From an uncultured Pelagibacteraceae bacterium (lineage in GTDB: Bacteria; Pseudomonadota; Alphaproteobacteria; Pelagibacterales; Pelagibacteraceae): a DNA stretch of 35,081 nucleotides. The notes below the pieces were generated by a model. The model made no database searches. It was given only the letters and a program-made list of their open reading frames with translations, and was not told the origin of the DNA. The translations under genes and the position numbers were made by a program. Every line of letters begins with the position of its first letter. Position 1 is the first letter of the stretch. This document shows positions 2-6,585 of the stretch, in pieces. The DNA is taken from assembly GCA_902590505.1 (NCBI GenBank), contig CACIWZ010000005.1, positions 1-35,081 on the forward strand, in the 5' to 3' direction.

Positions 2-544
2 GAAAAAATAATTAAAAATTTAAATAAGTCTAAAGTTACAACAATTTCCCCTTTAGAAATGAAAGTAATAAATAATAAAAATTCAGTAAAAAATTACTTA
101 GCCATCAATGAAGTTTCTATACTGAGACAGAGTAGACAAGCGGCTAATCTTTCAATTAAATTGAATTCAAAATTTATAATGAAAAAGTTAGTTTCAGATG
201 GTGTATTGATATCCACACCTGCTGGAAGCACAGCATATAATTTATCAGTTCACGGTCCAATATTAAATTTAAACTCTAAAAAAATATCAATCGCACCCAT
301 AAGTGCTTTTAGACCCAGAAGATGGCTCGGTAAAATTGTGAGTGATAGATCTAACATAATGATAACAAATTTAAATTCTGCAAAAAGACCAATCAGCGCA
401 GTAGCAGACAATTTAGAAGTAAGAAACGCAAAAAAAATAATTGTGAAAGTCCAAAAGAAGATAAAGTTTAAACTTCTTTACGATAGCAATAGAAGTTTAC
501 AAAAAAAGATCAAACTTGAACAATTGAGAAAAGAAGTTTCTTAA
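2..544 (+). CDS. nadK: NAD kinase, 3' part (5' end outside window)
   Basis: Phosphorylates NAD to NADP in the cytoplasm, the main source of NADP for biosynthesis. The reading frame is open to the left edge, so the 180 visible residues are the C-terminal two thirds of a protein normally about 255-300 residues long. An ATG at 59 is internal: the residues before it (ending TTISPLE) fit the family. Diagnostic motifs are NEVSILRQ (about visible residues 36-43), STPAGSTAY (71-79, the conserved NAD-binding segment) and ISAFRPRRW. The N-terminal GGDG motif lies outside the window. The stop codon is only 3 bp from a tRNA-Thr 3' fragment marking the left end of the island, so the gene and the original tRNA-Thr faced each other almost without spacer. 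No terminator is visible, and read-through into hsdM on the same strand is possible. Confidence 0.93.
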   Translation, partial: EKIIKNLNKSKVTTISPLEMKVINNKNSVKNYLAINEVSILRQSRQAANLSIKLNSKFIMKKLVSDGVLISTPAGSTAYNLSVHGPILNLNSKKISIAPISAFRPRRWLGKIVSDRSNIMITNLNSAKRPISAVADNLEVRNAKKIIVKVQKKIKFKLLYDSNRSLQKKIKLEQLRKEVS

Positions 545-547
545 TTA

Positions 548-594
548 TGGTGCCCTCACACGGACTCGAACCGCGAACCTATTGATTACAAATC
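548..594 (-). repeat. Left attachment core: 47-bp tRNA-Thr 3' fragment
   Basis: Perfect copy of the 3' 47 nt of the tRNA-Thr at 5678-5753. It covers the last two bases of the anticodon 5' stem, the anticodon loop, variable loop, T arm, acceptor 3' strand and encoded CCA. Similarity stops abruptly at 595, so there is no 5' half and it cannot be a functional tRNA. It begins 3 bp after the nadK stop codon. It is the expected site-specific scar, with the crossover probably in or near the anticodon loop. Confidence 0.92.
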
Positions 595-619
595 TTCAAG
601 CAAGGTACATTATTCTTTC

Positions 620-636
620 TATTATCATTGATAATA
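620..636. promoter_or_regulatory. Short palindrome upstream of hsdM (possible operator)
   Basis: TATTATCA and TGATAATA form a perfect 8-bp inverted repeat around one central base, in the 124-bp stretch between the tRNA fragment and the hsdM start. A dyad of this size could be an operator or recombination-factor site controlling the R-M operon. In sequence this AT-rich such dyads also arise by chance, and no controller gene is encoded in the island. No convincing -35/-10 pair could be assigned to hsdM; a TATATT at 667-672 abuts the 23-bp repeat and might be a -10 box. Confidence 0.3.
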
Positions 637-671
637 AAGGATAGTGGATTCATCGGTCAAGAAGTTTATAT

Positions 672-694
672 TCGGACACCACATAGACACCACA
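672..694 (+). repeat. Left 23-bp subterminal repeat (putative recombinase arm site)
   Basis: Identical to 5569-5591 and in the same orientation. It contains the 9-mer GACACCACA twice (675-683 and 686-694), separated by TA, so the two units are 11 bp apart, about one helical turn. It lies 77 bp inside the left attachment core and 24 bp before the chosen hsdM start. Tandem short repeats in helical phase beside a core site are typical of arm-type sites of lambda/P4-like tyrosine recombinases. The binding role is inferred. Confidence 0.75.
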
Positions 695-718
695 GTAAAA
701 AAAAATTACAATAGTAAA

Positions 719-2173
719 ATGTTTGAACAAACATTTAAAAATATAGATGACATACTTTGGAAAGATGCAGGTTGTAGTACCGAGTTAGATTATGCTGAGC
801 AATCATCATGGATATTGTTTCTTAAATGGTTAGATGATTATGAGAAAGAGAAAGAAACTAAAGCTAAACTAGAGAACAAAAAATTTAAGCCTACGCTAGA
901 TAAAGAATTTCAATGGTCTACTTGGGCTATAGTTAAAGATAAATCAGGAAAAGTAGATTTTAATAAATCTCTTACAGGGCCAGACCTTAAGAAGTTTGTT
1001 GATGACAAACTATTCCCTTACCTTTCTTCGTTTAGAAACAGCGCTGAAAGGTTTGATACACTTGAATATAAAATTGGTGAAATATTTTCTGAGCTTAAAA
1101 ACAAGCTACAAGATGGTTACACATTAAGAGATGTTGTTAATGAAGTAGATAATCTTCAGTTTCAAAGCAATGAACAAAAGCATGAGCTGAGTGCTTTATA
1201 TGAGGAAAAGATTAAGAACATGGGAAATGCTGGTCGTAATGGTGGTGAATATTATACTCCAAGACCACTAATTAAATCTATTGTTAAAGTCATAGACCCT
1301 AAAGTTGGCGAAACTGTTTATGATGGTGCTGTTGGCAGTGCAGGATTTTTAGTTGAAGCATTCGAGCACATGAGCCAGTCAAAGTCTTTAACGGCTTCAG
1401 AACTTAAAATACTTCAAACAAAATCATTCTATGGAGCAGAAAAAAAAACCTTAGCTTACATTATTGGCATTATGAATATGATACTTCATGGAATAGAGAG
1501 CCCTAATATCATTCACCAAAATACACTTGAGACTAATATTCAAGAAATACAAAACAAAGATAGGGTGGATGTTATACTTGCTAACCCTCCTTTTGGTGGA
1601 AAAGAAAAAACTAATATACAAGAAAACTTTCCTATTAAGACAGGAGAGACTGCATACTTATTTCTTCAGCATTTTATTAAAAAACTTAAAGTAGGTGGAA
1701 GATGTGGTGTGGTTATCAAAAATACTTTCTTAAGCAATACAGACAATGCAAGTATAGCTCTTAGAAAACAATTGCTCGAAGAATGTAATTTATTTTCAAT
1801 ACTTGATTTACCCAAAGGAACTTTTCTTGGAACTGGGGTTAAGACAGTTGTATTGTTTTTTGAAAAAGGTAAACCAACTAAAAAAATTTGGAACTACCAG
1901 CTTGATGCTGGAAGGAACATGGGTAAAACTAATCCGTTAAATGATAATGACTTAACTCATTTTATTAAATTAGCCAAAACACAAAAACTAAGTGACAATA
2001 GTTGGACTACGAAGATAGAAAAAATAAATAAAGATACTTTTGATTTAGGAGTTAAAAACCCTAACAAAGTTGAAGAAATAGACAACAGAACAGCAAAAGA
2101 GATACTAGCTGAGATAGAAGAACTTGATAAACAATCTTCTGGTGTATTGAAAAGCATTAAGGAATTTTTATGA
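719..2173 (+). CDS. hsdM: Type I restriction-modification DNA methyltransferase subunit M
   Basis: Methylates adenine N6 at sites chosen by HsdS; two M subunits plus one S form the methylase, and adding R gives the restriction complex. The protein is 484 residues. N-terminal HsdM bundle begins MFEQTFKNIDD. Then come GEYYTPRPL (176-184), the S-adenosylmethionine motif I variant DGAVGSAGF (202-210) and the catalytic NPPF motif (289-292). A GTG-started extension to 644 is open but runs through the 23-bp repeat and does not resemble HsdM, so the ATG at 719 was chosen. It overlaps hsdS by ATGA (2170-2173). No frameshift or missing catalytic residue is seen. It is the first gene of the island and may be expressed from an island promoter or by read-through from nadK. 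Confidence 0.95.
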   Translation: MFEQTFKNIDDILWKDAGCSTELDYAEQSSWILFLKWLDDYEKEKETKAKLENKKFKPTLDKEFQWSTWAIVKDKSGKVDFNKSLTGPDLKKFVDDKLFPYLSSFRNSAERFDTLEYKIGEIFSELKNKLQDGYTLRDVVNEVDNLQFQSNEQKHELSALYEEKIKNMGNAGRNGGEYYTPRPLIKSIVKVIDPKVGETVYDGAVGSAGFLVEAFEHMSQSKSLTASELKILQTKSFYGAEKKTLAYIIGIMNMILHGIESPNIIHQNTLETNIQEIQNKDRVDVILANPPFGGKEKTNIQENFPIKTGETAYLFLQHFIKKLKVGGRCGVVIKNTFLSNTDNASIALRKQLLEECNLFSILDLPKGTFLGTGVKTVVLFFEKGKPTKKIWNYQLDAGRNMGKTNPLNDNDLTHFIKLAKTQKLSDNSWTTKIEKINKDTFDLGVKNPNKVEEIDNRTAKEILAEIEELDKQSSGVLKSIKEFL

Positions 2174-3237
2174 TGTGGAAGACTTCGACTATAGATGAGA
2201 TATGTAACATAGAATATGGAACAAGAGTTGTTAGGAGAAAAGATAGCGGAACAGTTTATCCGGTGTATGGAGGTGGAGGTGAAACATTTTTAATTGATAA
2301 GACAAATCGACAGGATAGAGTTGTCATTTCACGTTTCGCCATGTCAGAACAATGCACGCGCTTTGTTAAAGGTAAGTTTTTTCTTAATGATAGCGGATTA
2401 ACATTATCACCTAAAACAAAAGATTTATCACAAGTTTTTCTAGACAAAACTATACTTTCATTAAATAGCACTATTTACCAACTTGGAAGAGGAATGGCTC
2501 AAAGAAATCTTTCTATGAAAAATTTTAGATTATTAAAAATAACTTACCCGACATCAATCGAAAAACAGCAACAAATAGTGGCAAAACTTGATACAGCGTT
2601 TGCTGAGATTGATAAATCTATTTCGTTAAATAAAAAAAAACTAGAAGGTTCCGCAACTGTAATATCAAAGATACTGCCAGATTTGTTTGACAGATATGTA
2701 AGTAAGTTCATTGACAGTCCACTTGGCTCATTATTTAAAGTTAGTTCAGGTAAATTTCTACCAAAGAAAAAAATGAATTCAGAAGGAAATATCAAAGTTT
2801 ACGGTGGAAACGGAATTTCTGGAAGCCATGATGATTTTAATTTAGATGGGAAAAATATTTTGATTGGAAGAGTTGGAGCTTATTGCGGCAATGTCCATTA
2901 TGTTAATGAAAAAATTTGGTTAACAGATAATGCAATGTATACCCACTCTTACAAATACAATTTTAATCTTAAATTTCTTTCTCTGATATTGTCTTCAATA
3001 AATATGGGGAGTTTTGCACGTCACGCTGCTCAGCCAGTTATCTCTTTTTCTTCAATAAAAGATTTAAAGATTAGATTTCCAGAATCTGTTGACGAACAGT
3101 CCCAAATAGTTAATGCTTTTGAAAAGATAGAAAATAATCTTCGTAAGCTGCGTATAAACTATAAAAAACAAAAACAAAATTTTGAAGTTCTTAAATCATC
3201 AATACTTAGTCAAGAAATAAAAAATAAAGTAGCATGA
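2170..3237 (+). CDS. hsdS: Type I restriction-modification specificity subunit S
   Basis: Recognises the bipartite target sequence and links the M and R subunits. The protein is 355 residues, short for HsdS (often about 400) but with the full two-domain plan. Target recognition domain 1 is about 5-128, ending near the YPTSIEKQQQIV transition. A helical spacer spans about 129-175, target recognition domain 2 about 185-303, and a second helical spacer 305-355 begins with SVDEQSQIV. The two spacer starts are clearly repeats of each other (EKQQQIV and DEQSQIV), as expected of HsdS internal symmetry. Both target domains carry YGG-containing turns (33-37 and 211-213). ATG at 2170 overlaps the hsdM stop; ATG at 2173 is an equal alternative. 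It overlaps hsdR by ATGA at 3234. The recognition sequence cannot be read from the protein. Confidence 0.92.
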   Translation: MMWKTSTIDEICNIEYGTRVVRRKDSGTVYPVYGGGGETFLIDKTNRQDRVVISRFAMSEQCTRFVKGKFFLNDSGLTLSPKTKDLSQVFLDKTILSLNSTIYQLGRGMAQRNLSMKNFRLLKITYPTSIEKQQQIVAKLDTAFAEIDKSISLNKKKLEGSATVISKILPDLFDRYVSKFIDSPLGSLFKVSSGKFLPKKKMNSEGNIKVYGGNGISGSHDDFNLDGKNILIGRVGAYCGNVHYVNEKIWLTDNAMYTHSYKYNFNLKFLSLILSSINMGSFARHAAQPVISFSSIKDLKIRFPESVDEQSQIVNAFEKIENNLRKLRINYKKQKQNFEVLKSSILSQEIKNKVA

Positions 3238-5564
3238 ACGAAGCAGATACAAGACGTGAGTTAATAGACCCTAAGATTAAAGAATCTGGTTGGGGTAAAG
3301 TTGATGGAAGTTATATCAGAGCTGAATTTCAAATTACCAATGGTGAAATTAAACCAGGAGGTATAAGAGCTGGAATAATTAAAGCAGATTATGTTTTAAT
3401 TTATAAAAATAGAAAACTTGCAGTAATAGAAGCTAAAAAAGATGAGCTTCCTGTAAGCGATGGTGTTGGTCAAGCTAAAGACTACGCTCAAAAGTTAAAG
3501 ATTTTAACTACTTACTCAACAAATGGAAAAGAAATCTATGAAATTAATTATTCTAAAGATGAAAAAGGTAAAATGTTTATTAAATCAGAAGGATTGGTTG
3601 ATAAATTTCCTTCCCCTGATGAACTATGGACTAAAACATTTAAAGATAAAAATGAATGGTCTAGTAGGTTCGATGCTATTAATTTTGAGCCATTTAAAGG
3701 AAATAGAGAACCTAGATATTATCAAGAAATAGCAATCAATAATGCTCTTGATGCTATAGCGGATAAACAACAAAGAATTCTTCTTACTCTCGCAACAGGT
3801 ACAGGTAAAACAGTAATAGCATTTCATATTGCATGGAAATTATTTCAATCCAGATGGAATATTCAAAGAGATGGAAAAAGAATTCCAAGAGTACTGTTCC
3901 TTGCAGATAGAAATATCTTAGCTAATCAGGCTTTTAATTCTTTTGGCGCATTTGATGAAAATGCCTTAGTTAGAATTACACCTCAAGATGTGAGGGATAA
4001 AGGACATGTGCCAACAAATGGTGCTGTGTTCTTCACAATATTTCAAAGCTTTATGTCAGGGCCACAAAACAAACCTTACTTTGGTCAGTATCCTGCTGAT
4101 TTTTTTGATTTAGTAATTATTGATGAATGTCATAGAGGTGGAGCTAAAGATGAAAGTAGATGGAGAGGTATAATGGAATATTTTTCTTCAGCAGTGCAAA
4201 TTGGTTTAACTGCAACACCAAAAAGAAAATTTAATGCTGATACTTATAATTACTTTGGTGAACCTGTTTATACCTACTCATTAAAAGATGGAATTAAAGA
4301 TGGTTTCTTAACTCCTTTTAAAGTTAAAAGAATCCAAACTACAATGGATGAATATGTTTATACAGGTGATGATGACATTTTAGCGGGAGAAGAAGAAATA
4401 ACTGAAGGTGAAGTGTTCCAAGAGAAAGATTTTAATAAAAAAATAGTTATTGAAGAAAGAGAAAAGAAAAGAGTTCAGTTGATGTTAGATAGTATTAATC
4501 CAAAAGAAAAAACTCTCGTCTTCTGTGCAAGTATTGCTCATGCTGGAATGGTCAGAGATTTAATTAATCAAATATCTGTTAAACCTCCAGCTGATTATTG
4601 TGTGCGGGTTACTGCGAAAGATACTAAAACAGGTGACACTCATTTAAGGCAGTTCCAAGATAACGAAAAAACATTACCTACTATATTGACGACTAGTCAA
4701 AAACTAAGCACAGGTGTTGATGCATTAAATATAAGAAATATTGTCTTAATGAGACCTGTAAACAATATGATTGAATTTAAACAAATCATTGGAAGGGGTA
4801 CTAGACTATTCGAGGATAAATTTTATTTTACTATTGTAGATTTTGTTGGAGCTTCGGCTAACTTCTCTGACTCTGAGTGGGATGGAGAGCCAATTCCAGA
4901 AGAGCCACCAAAAGAAAAACCTGAGAAACCATTTGAGCCAGGTGAAGAAGTTGGAGGTGAAGAACCAACTGAACCTAAACCGCCAAAGGAAAAGATTATA
5001 ATTAAATTAGCTGAAGGTAAGGAATTAACAATTAAATCAATGTCAACATCGCTATTTTACTTTCAAGGTCAGCCAGTTACAGCTGAAGAATTTATCAAAA
5101 AATTATTCAACACTATTACTCTTCCAAACATCTTAAAAAGTGAAGAAGAGCTCAGAAACTTATGGTCTTCTCCAATAACAAGAAATGAACTTTTAAAAAA
5201 ACTTGAAGATAATGGATTTACCAAACAAGACTTAAAGTCTATTCAAACACTCATTGAAGCTGAAGATAGTGATATTTTTGATGTACTAGAACATATTGCT
5301 TATAGTAAAAAACCAATTCAAAGGGCTACAAGAGTTGCTAACGCTGAAAATGAAATACATAAAAATATTAATGAAAAACAAAAAGAATTTGTTGATTTTG
5401 TTTTGAGCAAATATGTAGAAGGAGGGGTAGACGAACTAGATATTAATCGATTGAGTGATTTAATCGAACTTAAATATAAAACAATTCATGACGGTCAAAA
5501 AGTTTTAGGTAATCCAGACAGTATTAAAAAGACTTTTATAGAATTCCAAAAGTTTCTTTATTAA
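3234..5564 (+). CDS. hsdR: Type I restriction endonuclease subunit R (ATP-dependent translocase/nuclease)
   Basis: Translocates and cuts unmodified DNA when bound to HsdM and HsdS. The protein is 776 residues. An N-terminal PD-(D/E)XK nuclease shows D52 and E66-A-K68 in the context ADYVLIYK...AVIEAKK. Superfamily 2 helicase motifs follow: Walker A ATGTGKT (187-193), DECH (297-300), TAT (326-328), and a later QIIGRGTRLF motif VI. A charged Pro/Glu/Lys linker (about 550-590) leads to a C-terminal helical domain like that of EcoEI-type R subunits. It starts at the ATGA overlap with hsdS, so the three genes are translationally coupled in the order M-S-R. All catalytic motifs are intact, so restriction is probably active. 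It faces tRNA-Thr and rlmB; no good terminator lies in 5565-5677. Confidence 0.95.
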   Translation: MNEADTRRELIDPKIKESGWGKVDGSYIRAEFQITNGEIKPGGIRAGIIKADYVLIYKNRKLAVIEAKKDELPVSDGVGQAKDYAQKLKILTTYSTNGKEIYEINYSKDEKGKMFIKSEGLVDKFPSPDELWTKTFKDKNEWSSRFDAINFEPFKGNREPRYYQEIAINNALDAIADKQQRILLTLATGTGKTVIAFHIAWKLFQSRWNIQRDGKRIPRVLFLADRNILANQAFNSFGAFDENALVRITPQDVRDKGHVPTNGAVFFTIFQSFMSGPQNKPYFGQYPADFFDLVIIDECHRGGAKDESRWRGIMEYFSSAVQIGLTATPKRKFNADTYNYFGEPVYTYSLKDGIKDGFLTPFKVKRIQTTMDEYVYTGDDDILAGEEEITEGEVFQEKDFNKKIVIEEREKKRVQLMLDSINPKEKTLVFCASIAHAGMVRDLINQISVKPPADYCVRVTAKDTKTGDTHLRQFQDNEKTLPTILTTSQKLSTGVDALNIRNIVLMRPVNNMIEFKQIIGRGTRLFEDKFYFTIVDFVGASANFSDSEWDGEPIPEEPPKEKPEKPFEPGEEVGGEEPTEPKPPKEKIIIKLAEGKELTIKSMSTSLFYFQGQPVTAEEFIKKLFNTITLPNILKSEEELRNLWSSPITRNELLKKLEDNGFTKQDLKSIQTLIEAEDSDIFDVLEHIAYSKKPIQRATRVANAENEIHKNINEKQKEFVDFVLSKYVEGGVDELDINRLSDLIELKYKTIHDGQKVLGNPDSIKKTFIEFQKFLY

Positions 5565-5568
5565 AATC

Positions 5569-5591
5569 TCGGACACCACATAGACACCACA
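5569..5591 (+). repeat. Right 23-bp subterminal repeat (putative recombinase arm site)
   Basis: Perfect copy of 672-694, same orientation, beginning 5 bp after the hsdR stop. The GACACCACA units are at 5572-5580 and 5583-5591. It lies 86 bp inside the right attachment core, nearly the same distance as on the left (77 bp). In a circular form, the two repeats would flank one 47-bp core at similar distances, as in an attP. The rest of the gap, 5592-5677, shows no gene and no convincing terminator. Confidence 0.75.
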
Positions 5592-5677
5592 AGCATTTCT
5601 ATGTTCATCACTTGTATCACTGTTGTTCTTAGTAAGATTTTTTTATAAATTTAAAAGTTAAGGATTTACTTTCTTTG

Positions 5678-5724
5678 TGGTGCCCTCACACGGACTCGAA
5701 CCGCGAACCTATTGATTACAAATC
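5678..5724 (-). repeat. Right attachment core within tRNA-Thr
   Basis: This is the 3' 47 nt of the intact tRNA-Thr, identical to 548-594. The sequence downstream of the tRNA 3' end (below 5678) is island DNA, so the present 3' trailer of the tRNA transcript was supplied by the element. Confidence 0.92.
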
Positions 5725-5753
5725 AATTGCTCTACCAATTGAGCTATGAGGGC
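5678..5753 (-). tRNA. tRNA-Thr (anticodon TGT)
   Basis: A 76-nt cloverleaf on the minus strand with 7-bp acceptor pairing GCCCTCA/TGAGGGC, encoded CCA, D arm GCTC/GAGC, anticodon stem ATTGA/TCAAT with loop TTTGTAA (anticodon TGT), and a T arm with the TTCGAGT loop. It lies 44 bp after the rlmB stop on the same strand and may be cotranscribed with it. It is the integration target of the Type I R-M island, and the gene is intact because the element restores the 3' half. Confidence 0.96.
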
Positions 5754-5797: not shown

Positions 5798-6553
5798 TTA
5801 TTTACTTTCTGTATTTATTGAATGAAAAATATGATGACATACCACAGAAACGGTATTTGCAATATTTAAACTTTCAATTTTGTTGTTCATATTTACTTTA
5901 AATCTAAAGTCTGAATTTTCTAAAGTTTTTGTTTTAATCCCATAACCTTCTGAACCAAAAAGAAGAACATTTTTTCCTTTCCAATTATTTTTTGTAAAGT
6001 CTTTATTTGAATTTATATCAAAAGCACTAATCCAAAAGTCTTTGGTTTTAAGGAAATTCAAAGCAGTATTCAGATTAGAAACTTTGAATATTTTTAAATG
6101 TTCTGTGCCACCACTTGCACTTTTATAAAGCAACTTACTTTTAGATGGAAAGCTTCTCTCTTTTACTATCAATCCATCTATATTAAATGCAACAGCACTC
6201 CGAATTATTGAACCTATATTTCTAGGATCTGTAACTTCTTCTAATGCAACTAAATTGATATTTTTATGTTTATTTAAAACAGCAAACTCTTTTAAAGTAA
6301 TTTCTTCTAGTTGTTCTACCTCTGCAACTAAACCTTGGTGAGCTGTTTCATCTTTACCACATAAATTGTCTAATTCTTTTCTTGATTTAAAAAAAACATT
6401 TAAAGATTTAAAAAGGTTTAATGATTGATTTTCCCTGTTTAATTTTTTTTGTGCATCTTCCGTTAAAAAAACCCTCTCGATTTTTCTTGCTGGATTTTTT
6501 AATGCTTCTAAAACAGCATGTTTTCCAACTATTAAAAATGTCGTTTTTTTCAT
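5798..6553 (-). CDS. rlmB: 23S rRNA 2'-O-ribose methyltransferase of the TrmH/SpoU family (RlmB-like)
   Basis: Predicted to methylate the 2'-OH of a guanosine in 23S rRNA (G2251 in E. coli numbering) using S-adenosylmethionine. From the ATG at 6553 the protein is 251 residues, normal for RlmB. The N-terminal substrate-binding domain starts with FLIVGKHAVLEAL. The knotted SPOUT domain carries motif 1 DPRNIGSIIRSA (109-120), motif 2 LLFGSEGYGI (197-206) and motif 3 IESLNIANTVSV (226-237). An upstream in-frame TTG at 6574 would add 7 residues; the ATG was preferred because it fits the family start. Neither has a clear Shine-Dalgarno. The gene is divergent from the tRNA-Tyr/tuf block and upstream of tRNA-Thr. 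The exact nucleotide modified is assigned by family only. Confidence 0.88.
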   Translation of the reverse strand: MKKTTFLIVGKHAVLEALKNPARKIERVFLTEDAQKKLNRENQSLNLFKSLNVFFKSRKELDNLCGKDETAHQGLVAEVEQLEEITLKEFAVLNKHKNINLVALEEVTDPRNIGSIIRSAVAFNIDGLIVKERSFPSKSKLLYKSASGGTEHLKIFKVSNLNTALNFLKTKDFWISAFDINSNKDFTKNNWKGKNVLLFGSEGYGIKTKTLENSDFRFKVNMNNKIESLNIANTVSVVCHHIFHSINTESK

Positions 6554-6585
6554 GTTTTTGAGTAATTTTTTCAAATTAATAGCAT

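What the first reader, a model, noticed from the sequence alone, without database searches (positions are those of the whole stretch)
548..5724. A 5.1-kb integrase-less tRNA-Thr island consisting of one Type I R-M operon
A perfect 47-bp repeat of the tRNA-Thr 3' half brackets a unit that is almost wholly hsdM-hsdS-hsdR (4.85 of 5.13 kb), with no recombinase, excisionase or transfer gene. This is more compact than ordinary tRNA-borne islands. It suggests a non-autonomous 'defence cassette' moved in trans by a recombinase elsewhere in the cell or on a phage or related element. If the same ends carry different cargo in relatives, this would be a family of minimal satellite islands in a streamlined genome.
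Basis: partly seen in the sequence, partly recalled or inferred. Interest (0 to 1): 0.82.

Follow-up and report, generated by a model that had tools for sequence, protein, structure and literature searches.

The report
Integrase-less tRNA cassettes in SAR11 bacteria
In tiny-genome ocean bacteria, a complete restriction-modification system sits at the end of a tRNA gene as a bare cassette with matched end signals but no enzyme to move it, and relatives carry other genes, among them other defence systems, between the same kind of ends, which suggests that such genes are swapped by enzymes borrowed from other mobile elements.

Summary
A perfect 47-bp copy of the tRNA-Thr 3' half (548-594 / 5678-5724) brackets 5,130 bp, of which 4,846 bp is hsdM-hsdS-hsdR, with no recombinase. 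Inside each end lies an identical, directly oriented 23-bp sequence holding two 11-bp-spaced repeats (672-694, 5569-5591).

The host is SAR11 (Pelagibacteraceae). At the same tRNA-Thr, relatives in three genera carry this architecture with other cargo: 15 units in 14 genomes; counting a truncated sixteenth, six carry defence-type genes. In 20 of 40 sampled single-copy genomes nadK abuts the tRNA (empty site). The end motif differs between elements but agrees between the two ends of one element in 11 of 15 units (permutation test: 0 of 20,000). That is the signature of integrase arm-type sites.

Integrase-encoding SAR11 elements at other tRNAs mostly carry similar paired repeats just upstream of int; three of them encode a terminase-small-subunit-like protein. 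One stands in tandem with an integrase-less unit sharing its core and arm motif.

Best reading: a family of non-autonomous cassettes, defined by their recombination sites and mobilised in trans. No integrase was found at tRNA-Thr, and mobility itself is unproven.

The parts
2..544 (+). 3' part of nadK (contig begins inside it); left flank, abuts the tRNA in empty relatives
   Evidence: Pfam NAD_kinase_C; in 20 of 40 sampled relatives the aligned nadK end lies 8-37 bp from the tRNA-Thr core
548..594 (-). distal copy of the tRNA-Thr 3' half (attL-like core)
   Evidence: exact 47-bp repeat
595..671 (.). conserved left inner end between core and arm repeats
   Evidence: left ends (about 100 bp after the core) 85.6-95.0% identical among six same-genus units; nadK DNA 69.5-78.6% identical among the seven genomes where it was extracted
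672..694 (+). left arm-type site (inferred): two 11-bp-spaced GACACCACA repeats
   Evidence: exact 23-bp direct repeat; agrees with the other end in relatives while differing between them
719..2173 (+). hsdM, Type I DNA methyltransferase subunit
   Evidence: Pfam/PADLOC; start
2170..3237 (+). hsdS, specificity subunit
   Evidence: Pfam Methylase_S, two stretches
3234..5564 (+). hsdR, EcoAI/FtnUII-family restriction subunit
   Evidence: NCBIfam NF046051, 785 bits
5569..5591 (+). right arm-type site (inferred), same sequence and orientation as the left
5592..5677 (.). right inner end (86 nt between arm and tRNA 3' end)
   Evidence: right ends 86.2-92.7% identical among G000, G093, G054, G064, but only 71.6-76.4% to G092; arm-to-tRNA distance 85-102 nt in the nine elements whose longest end match is the arm
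5678..5753 (-). intact tRNA-Thr (TGT), integration target; its 3' 47 bp are the second core copy
   Evidence: ARAGORN
5798..6574 (-). rlmB-like SpoU rRNA methyltransferase, right flank
   Evidence: Pfam SpoU_methylase

Best explanation
This is one member of a family of non-autonomous integrative cassettes of SAR11. Each is defined by its ends: a copy of the tRNA 3' half as the crossover core and, inside each end (72-79 nt from the left core, 85-102 nt from the tRNA on the right), a matched pair of tandem 11-bp repeats that are arm-type binding sites for a tyrosine integrase. It carries a small load, here a complete Type I restriction-modification operon, in the place where related elements carry the integrase gene. 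Shown: architecture, empty sites, the same kind of ends with different cargo, end-to-end agreement of the repeats, absence of an integrase, and integrase-encoding SAR11 elements with similar paired repeats. Inferred: that the repeats are integrase sites, that an integrase supplied in trans by a satellite-like element or phage excises and inserts the cassette, and that the cassette still moves.
For: (1) Exact 47-bp tRNA duplication, and nadK directly beside tRNA-Thr in 20 of 40 sampled genomes. (2) Fifteen units with a duplicated tRNA-Thr core (left copies degenerate in G054 and G109, inverted in G025) in 14 Pelagibacteraceae genomes of three genera, cargo differing; no PF00589 match inside any of them (for the genus, for G186, G209, G233, G322, G357 and the truncated G402). 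(3) In 11 of the 15 the repeats at the two ends agree while differing between elements, e.g. GACACCACATAGACACCACA (window), TGAACAGTACAGGAACAGTACA (G100), TGCACCACATATGCACCACA (G186), TTCACTTCAAATTCACTTCA (G322), GACTTCAAAAAGACTTCA (G357). Test on ten of these 11: summed longest exact match between own ends 204, permuted mean 112.9, 0 of 20,000 permutations as high; for seven elements with different arm sequences, 1 of 5,040 pairings, the true one. (4) Left ends 85.6-95.0% identical among six genus units, against 69.5-78.6% for nadK in the seven genomes where it was extracted. (5) Most integrase-encoding SAR11 elements examined have paired repeats between core and int; in L257 and L264 the far end carries the same motif. 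(6) In G218 (L261) an integrase element and a 1.39-kb integrase-less unit stand in tandem at tRNA-Met with identical 48-nt cores and the same CTGACACA arm motif.
Against: No integrase at tRNA-Thr was found, and none of the integrase elements examined has the window's exact arm motif. No circle or transfer was observed. Four of 15 units lack a recognisable matched right arm (G025, G144b, G109, G209). G025's left end is inverted at a contig end, perhaps an amplification chimera. Taken singly, G092 and G012 (11-bp longest match) do not exceed the maxima of 200 shuffles (12 and 15), and in G093 the longest match (14 bp, shuffle maximum 12) is not the arm, whose two copies differ by one letter. The right end of G092 is only 71.6-76.4% identical to the others, no better than nadK. 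High end identity could reflect constraint and not recent transfer. The nadK-tRNA junction also holds inserts with no core copy in 11 of 40 sampled genomes, so it is flexible for other reasons too. At E <= 1e-50 hsdR has one other relative in 169 genus genomes, 38% identical, so its origin is unknown. In L019 and L261 the far-end repeats of the integrase element have other spacings (9 and 12 bp), and in L255 and L263 I could not match the far end.
Confidence: 0.74

Rival explanations
1. Fixed remnants: each unit is an integrative element that lost its integrase by deletion and is now immobile, kept for its cargo (a dead cis-mobilizable element).
For: No helper integrase seen at tRNA-Thr; degenerate left cores in G054 and G109, missing right arms in four of 15 units; in the DIRDFQ-type arrays of G109 several arm copies lie inside one long unit, which looks like old accretion.
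Against: The window's two cores and two arms are letter-perfect; the repeats keep agreeing at both ends while changing between elements, which needs selection or recent exchange; one end type carries unrelated cargo in different genomes.
Confidence: 0.15
2. Homologous-recombination cassette: the ends are simply conserved flanks through which flexible genes are exchanged, without any site-specific recombinase.
For: SAR11 recombine freely (a 2025 paper on genome-wide recombination in deep-ocean SAR11, PMC12374537, seen only in the listing); inserts without core copy occur at the same junction in 11 of 40 sampled genomes.
Against: Does not explain the exact tRNA duplication, the 11-bp-spaced repeat pairs, their regular distances, or their agreement within an element but not between elements.
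Confidence: 0.08
3. Assembly or amplification artefact joining a restriction operon to a duplicated tRNA end.
For: The window begins at a contig start; one relative (G025) shows an inverted contig end.
Against: Separate assemblies in three genera show the same architecture; GC is 31.9% in the unit and 31.6% to its right.
Confidence: 0.02

Closest known systems
CIMEs (cis-mobilizable elements) of ICE/IME systems
   Same: att sites retained, integration and transfer genes absent, tandem accretion with related elements (definition seen in passages of PMC5704250)
   Different: CIMEs are described there as decayed ICE/IME; here small units recur in three genera with end-matched repeats that differ between elements, and the candidate helpers look like phage satellites, not conjugative elements (conjugation genes were not searched for)
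Dehalococcoides ssrA islands without integration module
   Same: 15 islands with the repeat but no integration module, in tandem with complete islands, suggested to be cis-mobilizable (passages of PMC3146451)
   Different: Serine recombinase, ssrA target, reductive dehalogenase cargo; the passages seen do not mention end-matched arm repeats
Tycheposons (Prochlorococcus; reported in Methylophilaceae)
   Same: tRNA-bordered cargo elements in streamlined aquatic bacteria (passages of PMC10872708)
   Different: Described there as 4-200 kb with a tyrosine recombinase; this unit has none
Phage satellites (PICI, cfPICI, PICMI and others)
   Same: SAR11 integrase elements found here carry int, primase/helicase-like genes and in three cases a TerS-like gene, resembling satellites
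   Different: The tRNA-Thr cassette itself has none of these genes
CALIN arrays and MITEs (hitchers mobilised in trans)
   Same: Lack their enzyme and depend on one from a helper (passages of PMC11389934)
   Different: Other recombinase classes; here the site is a tRNA core with integrase-type arm repeats

Membership tests
CIME | retains attL and attR | tested here: met
   47-bp core copies and matched repeats at both ends; their function is not tested
CIME | no integrase or transfer gene | tested here: met
   only hsdM, hsdS, hsdR among ORFs of 90 aa or more
CIME | derived by decay from an ICE or IME | not testable with these tools
   no intact tRNA-Thr ancestor found
CIME | att sites functional (mobilised by accretion) | not testable with these tools
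   needs reads or an excision assay
Phage satellite (PICI/PICMI type) | own integrase | tested here: not met
   the two PF00589 matches of the genome lie on contigs C4 and C13
Phage satellite (PICI/PICMI type) | replication and packaging-interference genes | tested here: not met
   only hsd genes in the unit
Tycheposon | tyrosine recombinase within the element | tested here: not met
Tycheposon | tRNA border | tested here: met
Type I restriction-modification system | hsdM, hsdS, hsdR in one operon with family domains | tested here: met
   neighbouring genes overlap by 4 bp (coordinates)
Type I restriction-modification system | methylation and restriction activity | not testable with these tools
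   needs expression and methylome data

The most novel reading that the evidence does not exclude
SAR11 bacteria hold a two-tier mobile system: small tRNA-borne phage satellites (integrase, primase/helicase, TerS-like protein), and below them gene-sized cassettes that keep only the satellite's recombination sites and are moved, perhaps also packaged, at the satellite's expense. Immunity operons would circulate as interchangeable cassettes, with the arm-repeat sequence as a lineage code that decides which helper can move which cassette.
Probability: 0.35. Interest if true: 0.87.

Novelty: new variant of a known kind. Interest (0 to 1): 0.74.

Why it matters
SAR11 are among the most abundant ocean bacteria and have streamlined genomes (recalled). 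A cassette class with no enzyme of its own escapes integrase-based searches for mobile elements. If it moves, it gives a concrete route by which restriction and other defence systems are exchanged under phage pressure, and the arm repeats give a sequence-based way to find such cassettes and to predict their helpers.

Tried and rejected
Viral helper. The NN-spaced arm pattern had 55 stretches in viral contigs, none with the window's TA spacer. The exact 38-bp tRNA core had none. Other arm types gave 1, 2, 3 and 0 stretches; the six contigs have GC 0.43-0.63 and none looks like SAR11. In INPHARED no listed hit matched the 30-bp core query fully (273 records match, 60 rows listed each time); of four Pelagibacter phages among them one was listed, a 16-nt match inside a coding gene of HTVC022P. 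An integrase query hit 16 Pelagibacter phages; two were listed and examined (Ran EXVC014P, Hroenn EXVC015P): no tRNA-Thr core and no convincing paired repeat within 1.5 kb of int; the other 14 were not examined. Identities of integrase queries to phages in the rows listed were about 22-35%. A single-integrase search of viral contigs confirmed none.

tRNA-Thr helper in genomes. PF00589 hit 120 of 169 genus genomes; most hits are of Xer-like length and their surroundings were not fetched. I fetched 13 atypical or partial ones, plus the own element: none at tRNA-Thr, though five of the 13 stretches show no tRNA at all. The integrase of the own element hit 12 of 397 family genomes, and the alignment A1 16 of 297 order genomes, three of them longer, weaker matches; none of the loci examined was at tRNA-Thr.

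In one search the G025 rows are wrong because its end is inverted; I dropped them before quoting ranges. One search did not include G144a, recognised later. In G184 (L255) the ends look composite and I could not resolve them.

Literature: ten searches listed no paper on integrase-less tRNA cassettes in SAR11; the library holds open-licence PubMed Central papers only and each search listed at most 20 papers. I read passages of six papers, none in full.

Mended: genera three, not five; the arm motif in 8 of 169 genomes, not nine; defence cargo in six of 16 units, not a majority; distances and single-element test results.
Full report
What is there. The window begins at the first base of a contig of a 1.04-Mb, 17-contig genome. 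Kin records with names are titled uncultured Pelagibacteraceae bacterium, so the host is SAR11. A 47-bp exact copy of the tRNA-Thr 3' half lies at 548-594; the full tRNA-Thr is at 5678-5753, minus strand. Between them are hsdM (719-2173), hsdS (2170-3237) and hsdR (3234-5564) and no other ORF of 90 aa or more. HsdR is of the EcoAI/FtnUII family. A 23-bp sequence, holding two GACACCACA words 11 bp apart, occurs in the same orientation just inside both ends (672-694, 5569-5591).

Relatives. The left end (545-720) was searched in 169 genus genomes; 113 match, the great majority by the tRNA alone. In eight (G000, G025, G054, G092, G093, G100, G109, G144) the match runs well beyond the tRNA; G012 has a second core copy with a diverged end. 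A search of 397 family genomes added units in two other genera: G186, G209, G233, G322, G357 and a G402 unit cut by its contig end. In all I recognise 15 units with a duplicated tRNA-Thr core (two of them in tandem in G144) in 14 genomes of three genera. The left copy is degenerate in G054 and G109 and inverted, at a contig end, in G025. G064 and G079 have an arm near tRNA-Thr but no second core copy that I found. No PF00589 match lies inside these units: one search covers the genus genomes, another the six others.

Cargo of the 16 units (with G402). Defence-type, six: window, EcoAI-like Type I system; G100, a different Type I system with a HindI-like HsdR; G144 first unit, a 1,033-aa helicase resembling the helicase part of restriction enzymes; G233, an MmeI-like IIG enzyme, a helicase and a T5orf172 protein; G402, a PLD plus SNF2 helicase protein similar to defence proteins; G012, a 549-aa protein matching a candidate defence family, PDC-M72B. 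Others: G322, seven ORFs including a MotA/ExbB-like and a nuclease-like protein; G144 second unit, G025 and G357, a 278-296-aa protein and a giant protein of 1,612-1,663 aa, the G144 one weakly matching coiled-coil families; G054 and G093 one, and G092 and G109 several, small secreted-type proteins with variants of the motif DIRDFQIEGMSIGDSLL; G186 and G209, other proteins. I ran family searches on only part of these ORFs.

Empty and filled sites. Of about 100 genus genomes with a single tRNA-Thr match I fetched 40, going down the list. In 20 the aligned nadK end lies 8-37 bp from the tRNA core; 11 have an insert of 0.8-3.5 kb with no second core copy (two show one weak paired repeat inside); in 9 nadK is not on the fetched stretch. 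The junction is thus both an integration site and a generally flexible spot.

End signals. The paired 11-bp repeats differ among elements but agree between the two ends of one element in 11 of 15 units; G092 has single repeats, and in G093, G012 and G144a the two ends differ by one or a few letters. For ten of these 11 the summed longest exact match between own left and own right end was 204, against 112.9 for permuted pairings, none of 20,000 permutations reaching it; for seven elements with different arm sequences only the true pairing of 5,040 reached the observed sum. Singly, G092 and G012 do not exceed their shuffle maxima, and the longest match of G093 is not the arm. In the nine elements whose longest match is the arm, it starts 72-79 nt after the left core and ends 85-102 nt before the tRNA core. 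Left ends are 85.6-95.0% identical among G000, G054, G092, G093, G109 and G144b, 57.4-75.3% in comparisons that involve G100, G012 or G144a; right ends are 86.2-92.7% identical among G000, G054, G064 and G093 but 71.6-76.4% to G092; nadK DNA is 69.5-78.6% identical among the seven genomes where I extracted it. In the genus the window's arm motif, with up to two mismatches, occurs in 8 of 169 genomes, each time near tRNA-Thr. In the collection of one genome per species it occurs exactly in five Pelagibacteraceae records and one high-GC contig, where it looks like chance.

Candidate helpers. The genome has two PF00589 matches. One, 327 aa, belongs to a 5.1-kb element at tRNA-Met (50-bp core copies at L019 8518 and 13635) with paired repeats TCCGGCACA (11 bp apart) beside int and CGGCACA words (9 bp apart) near the far end. 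Relatives of this integrase occur in 12 of 397 family genomes and at further places in the order, at tRNA-Met, -Ser, -Asn, -Glu, -Arg, -Lys and tmRNA. Paired repeats lie between core and int in most of them; in L257 (tRNA-Asn) and L264 (tRNA-Arg) the far end carries the same motif. Several encode a primase/helicase-like protein, and the three tested for it (L258, L261, L263) a protein matching terminase small subunit families, so they resemble phage satellites. In L261 the order is tRNA-Met, integrase element, core copy, a 1.39-kb unit with two ORFs of 184 and 180 aa, core copy, and another arm. All three cores are identical over 48 nt and the arms of both units share CTGACACA. This is a helper-and-passenger arrangement in one chromosome.

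Mechanism. I take the repeats to be arm-type sites of tyrosine integrases, the tRNA stretch from anticodon stem to 3' end as the core, and the cassette as cargo in the position where int lies in the complete elements. The arm-type reading rests on known integrase biology (recalled) and on the placement beside int. An unrelated high-GC viral contig has the very repeat of G186 37 nt behind a tRNA-Val, 1.5 kb upstream of a tyrosine integrase gene (L328), which fits. Excision and insertion by an integrase from elsewhere is an inference. It is not shown that any helper now fits the window's arms. G144 holds two units with different arm types at one tRNA-Thr, so if the reading is right at least two integrase specificities use this tRNA.

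What is known. Elements that keep att sites but lack an integrase are known as CIMEs (PMC5704250, passages), and Dehalococcoides has such islands (PMC3146451, passages). Enzyme-less hitchers mobilised in trans include MITEs and CALINs (PMC11389934, passages). Tycheposons are tRNA-bordered but carry a recombinase (PMC10872708, passages). Tyrosine recombinases and tRNA genes beside a transferred operon in Pelagibacterales are in print (PMC12416821, passage). A paper on SAR11 ecogenomics names islands but its main text holds neither 'integrase' nor 'restriction' (PMC7318151, term search). What I did not find described in these searches is this SAR11 family, the end-to-end agreement of the arm repeats, and the helper-passenger tandem. 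I therefore call it a new variant of a known kind.

Noticed in passing
L258, L261, L263 (loci): SAR11 elements of about 5-6 kb with integrase, primase/helicase-like gene and a terminase-small-subunit-like gene: apparent phage satellites of SAR11.
   Followed up: partly
L014 2244-15940 (oriented); also L015, L016, L021, L107: Small secreted-type proteins sharing variants of DIRDFQIEGMSIGDSLL, often in arrays, some with an arm repeat about 25 bp upstream; no Pfam match for the one tested.
   Followed up: no
L025-L027, L030-L043 and others (viral contigs): Many viral contigs share a repeat of GGGACACCACA units with an inverted copy beside it; role unknown, same 11-bp period as the arm sites.
   Followed up: no
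L011 9167-9690: Inverted copy of the island left end at a contig end in G025, possibly an amplification chimera.
   Followed up: partly
L102 1780-7151: tRNA-Thr cassette of G322 with a MotA/ExbB-like protein, proteins without Pfam match and a nuclease-like protein; could be an unrecognised defence system.
   Followed up: no
L328 226-3106: High-GC viral contig with tRNA-Val, the repeat TGCACCACATATGCACCACA 37 nt behind it and a tyrosine integrase gene 1.5 kb further on: an independent case of a similar layout.
   Followed up: partly
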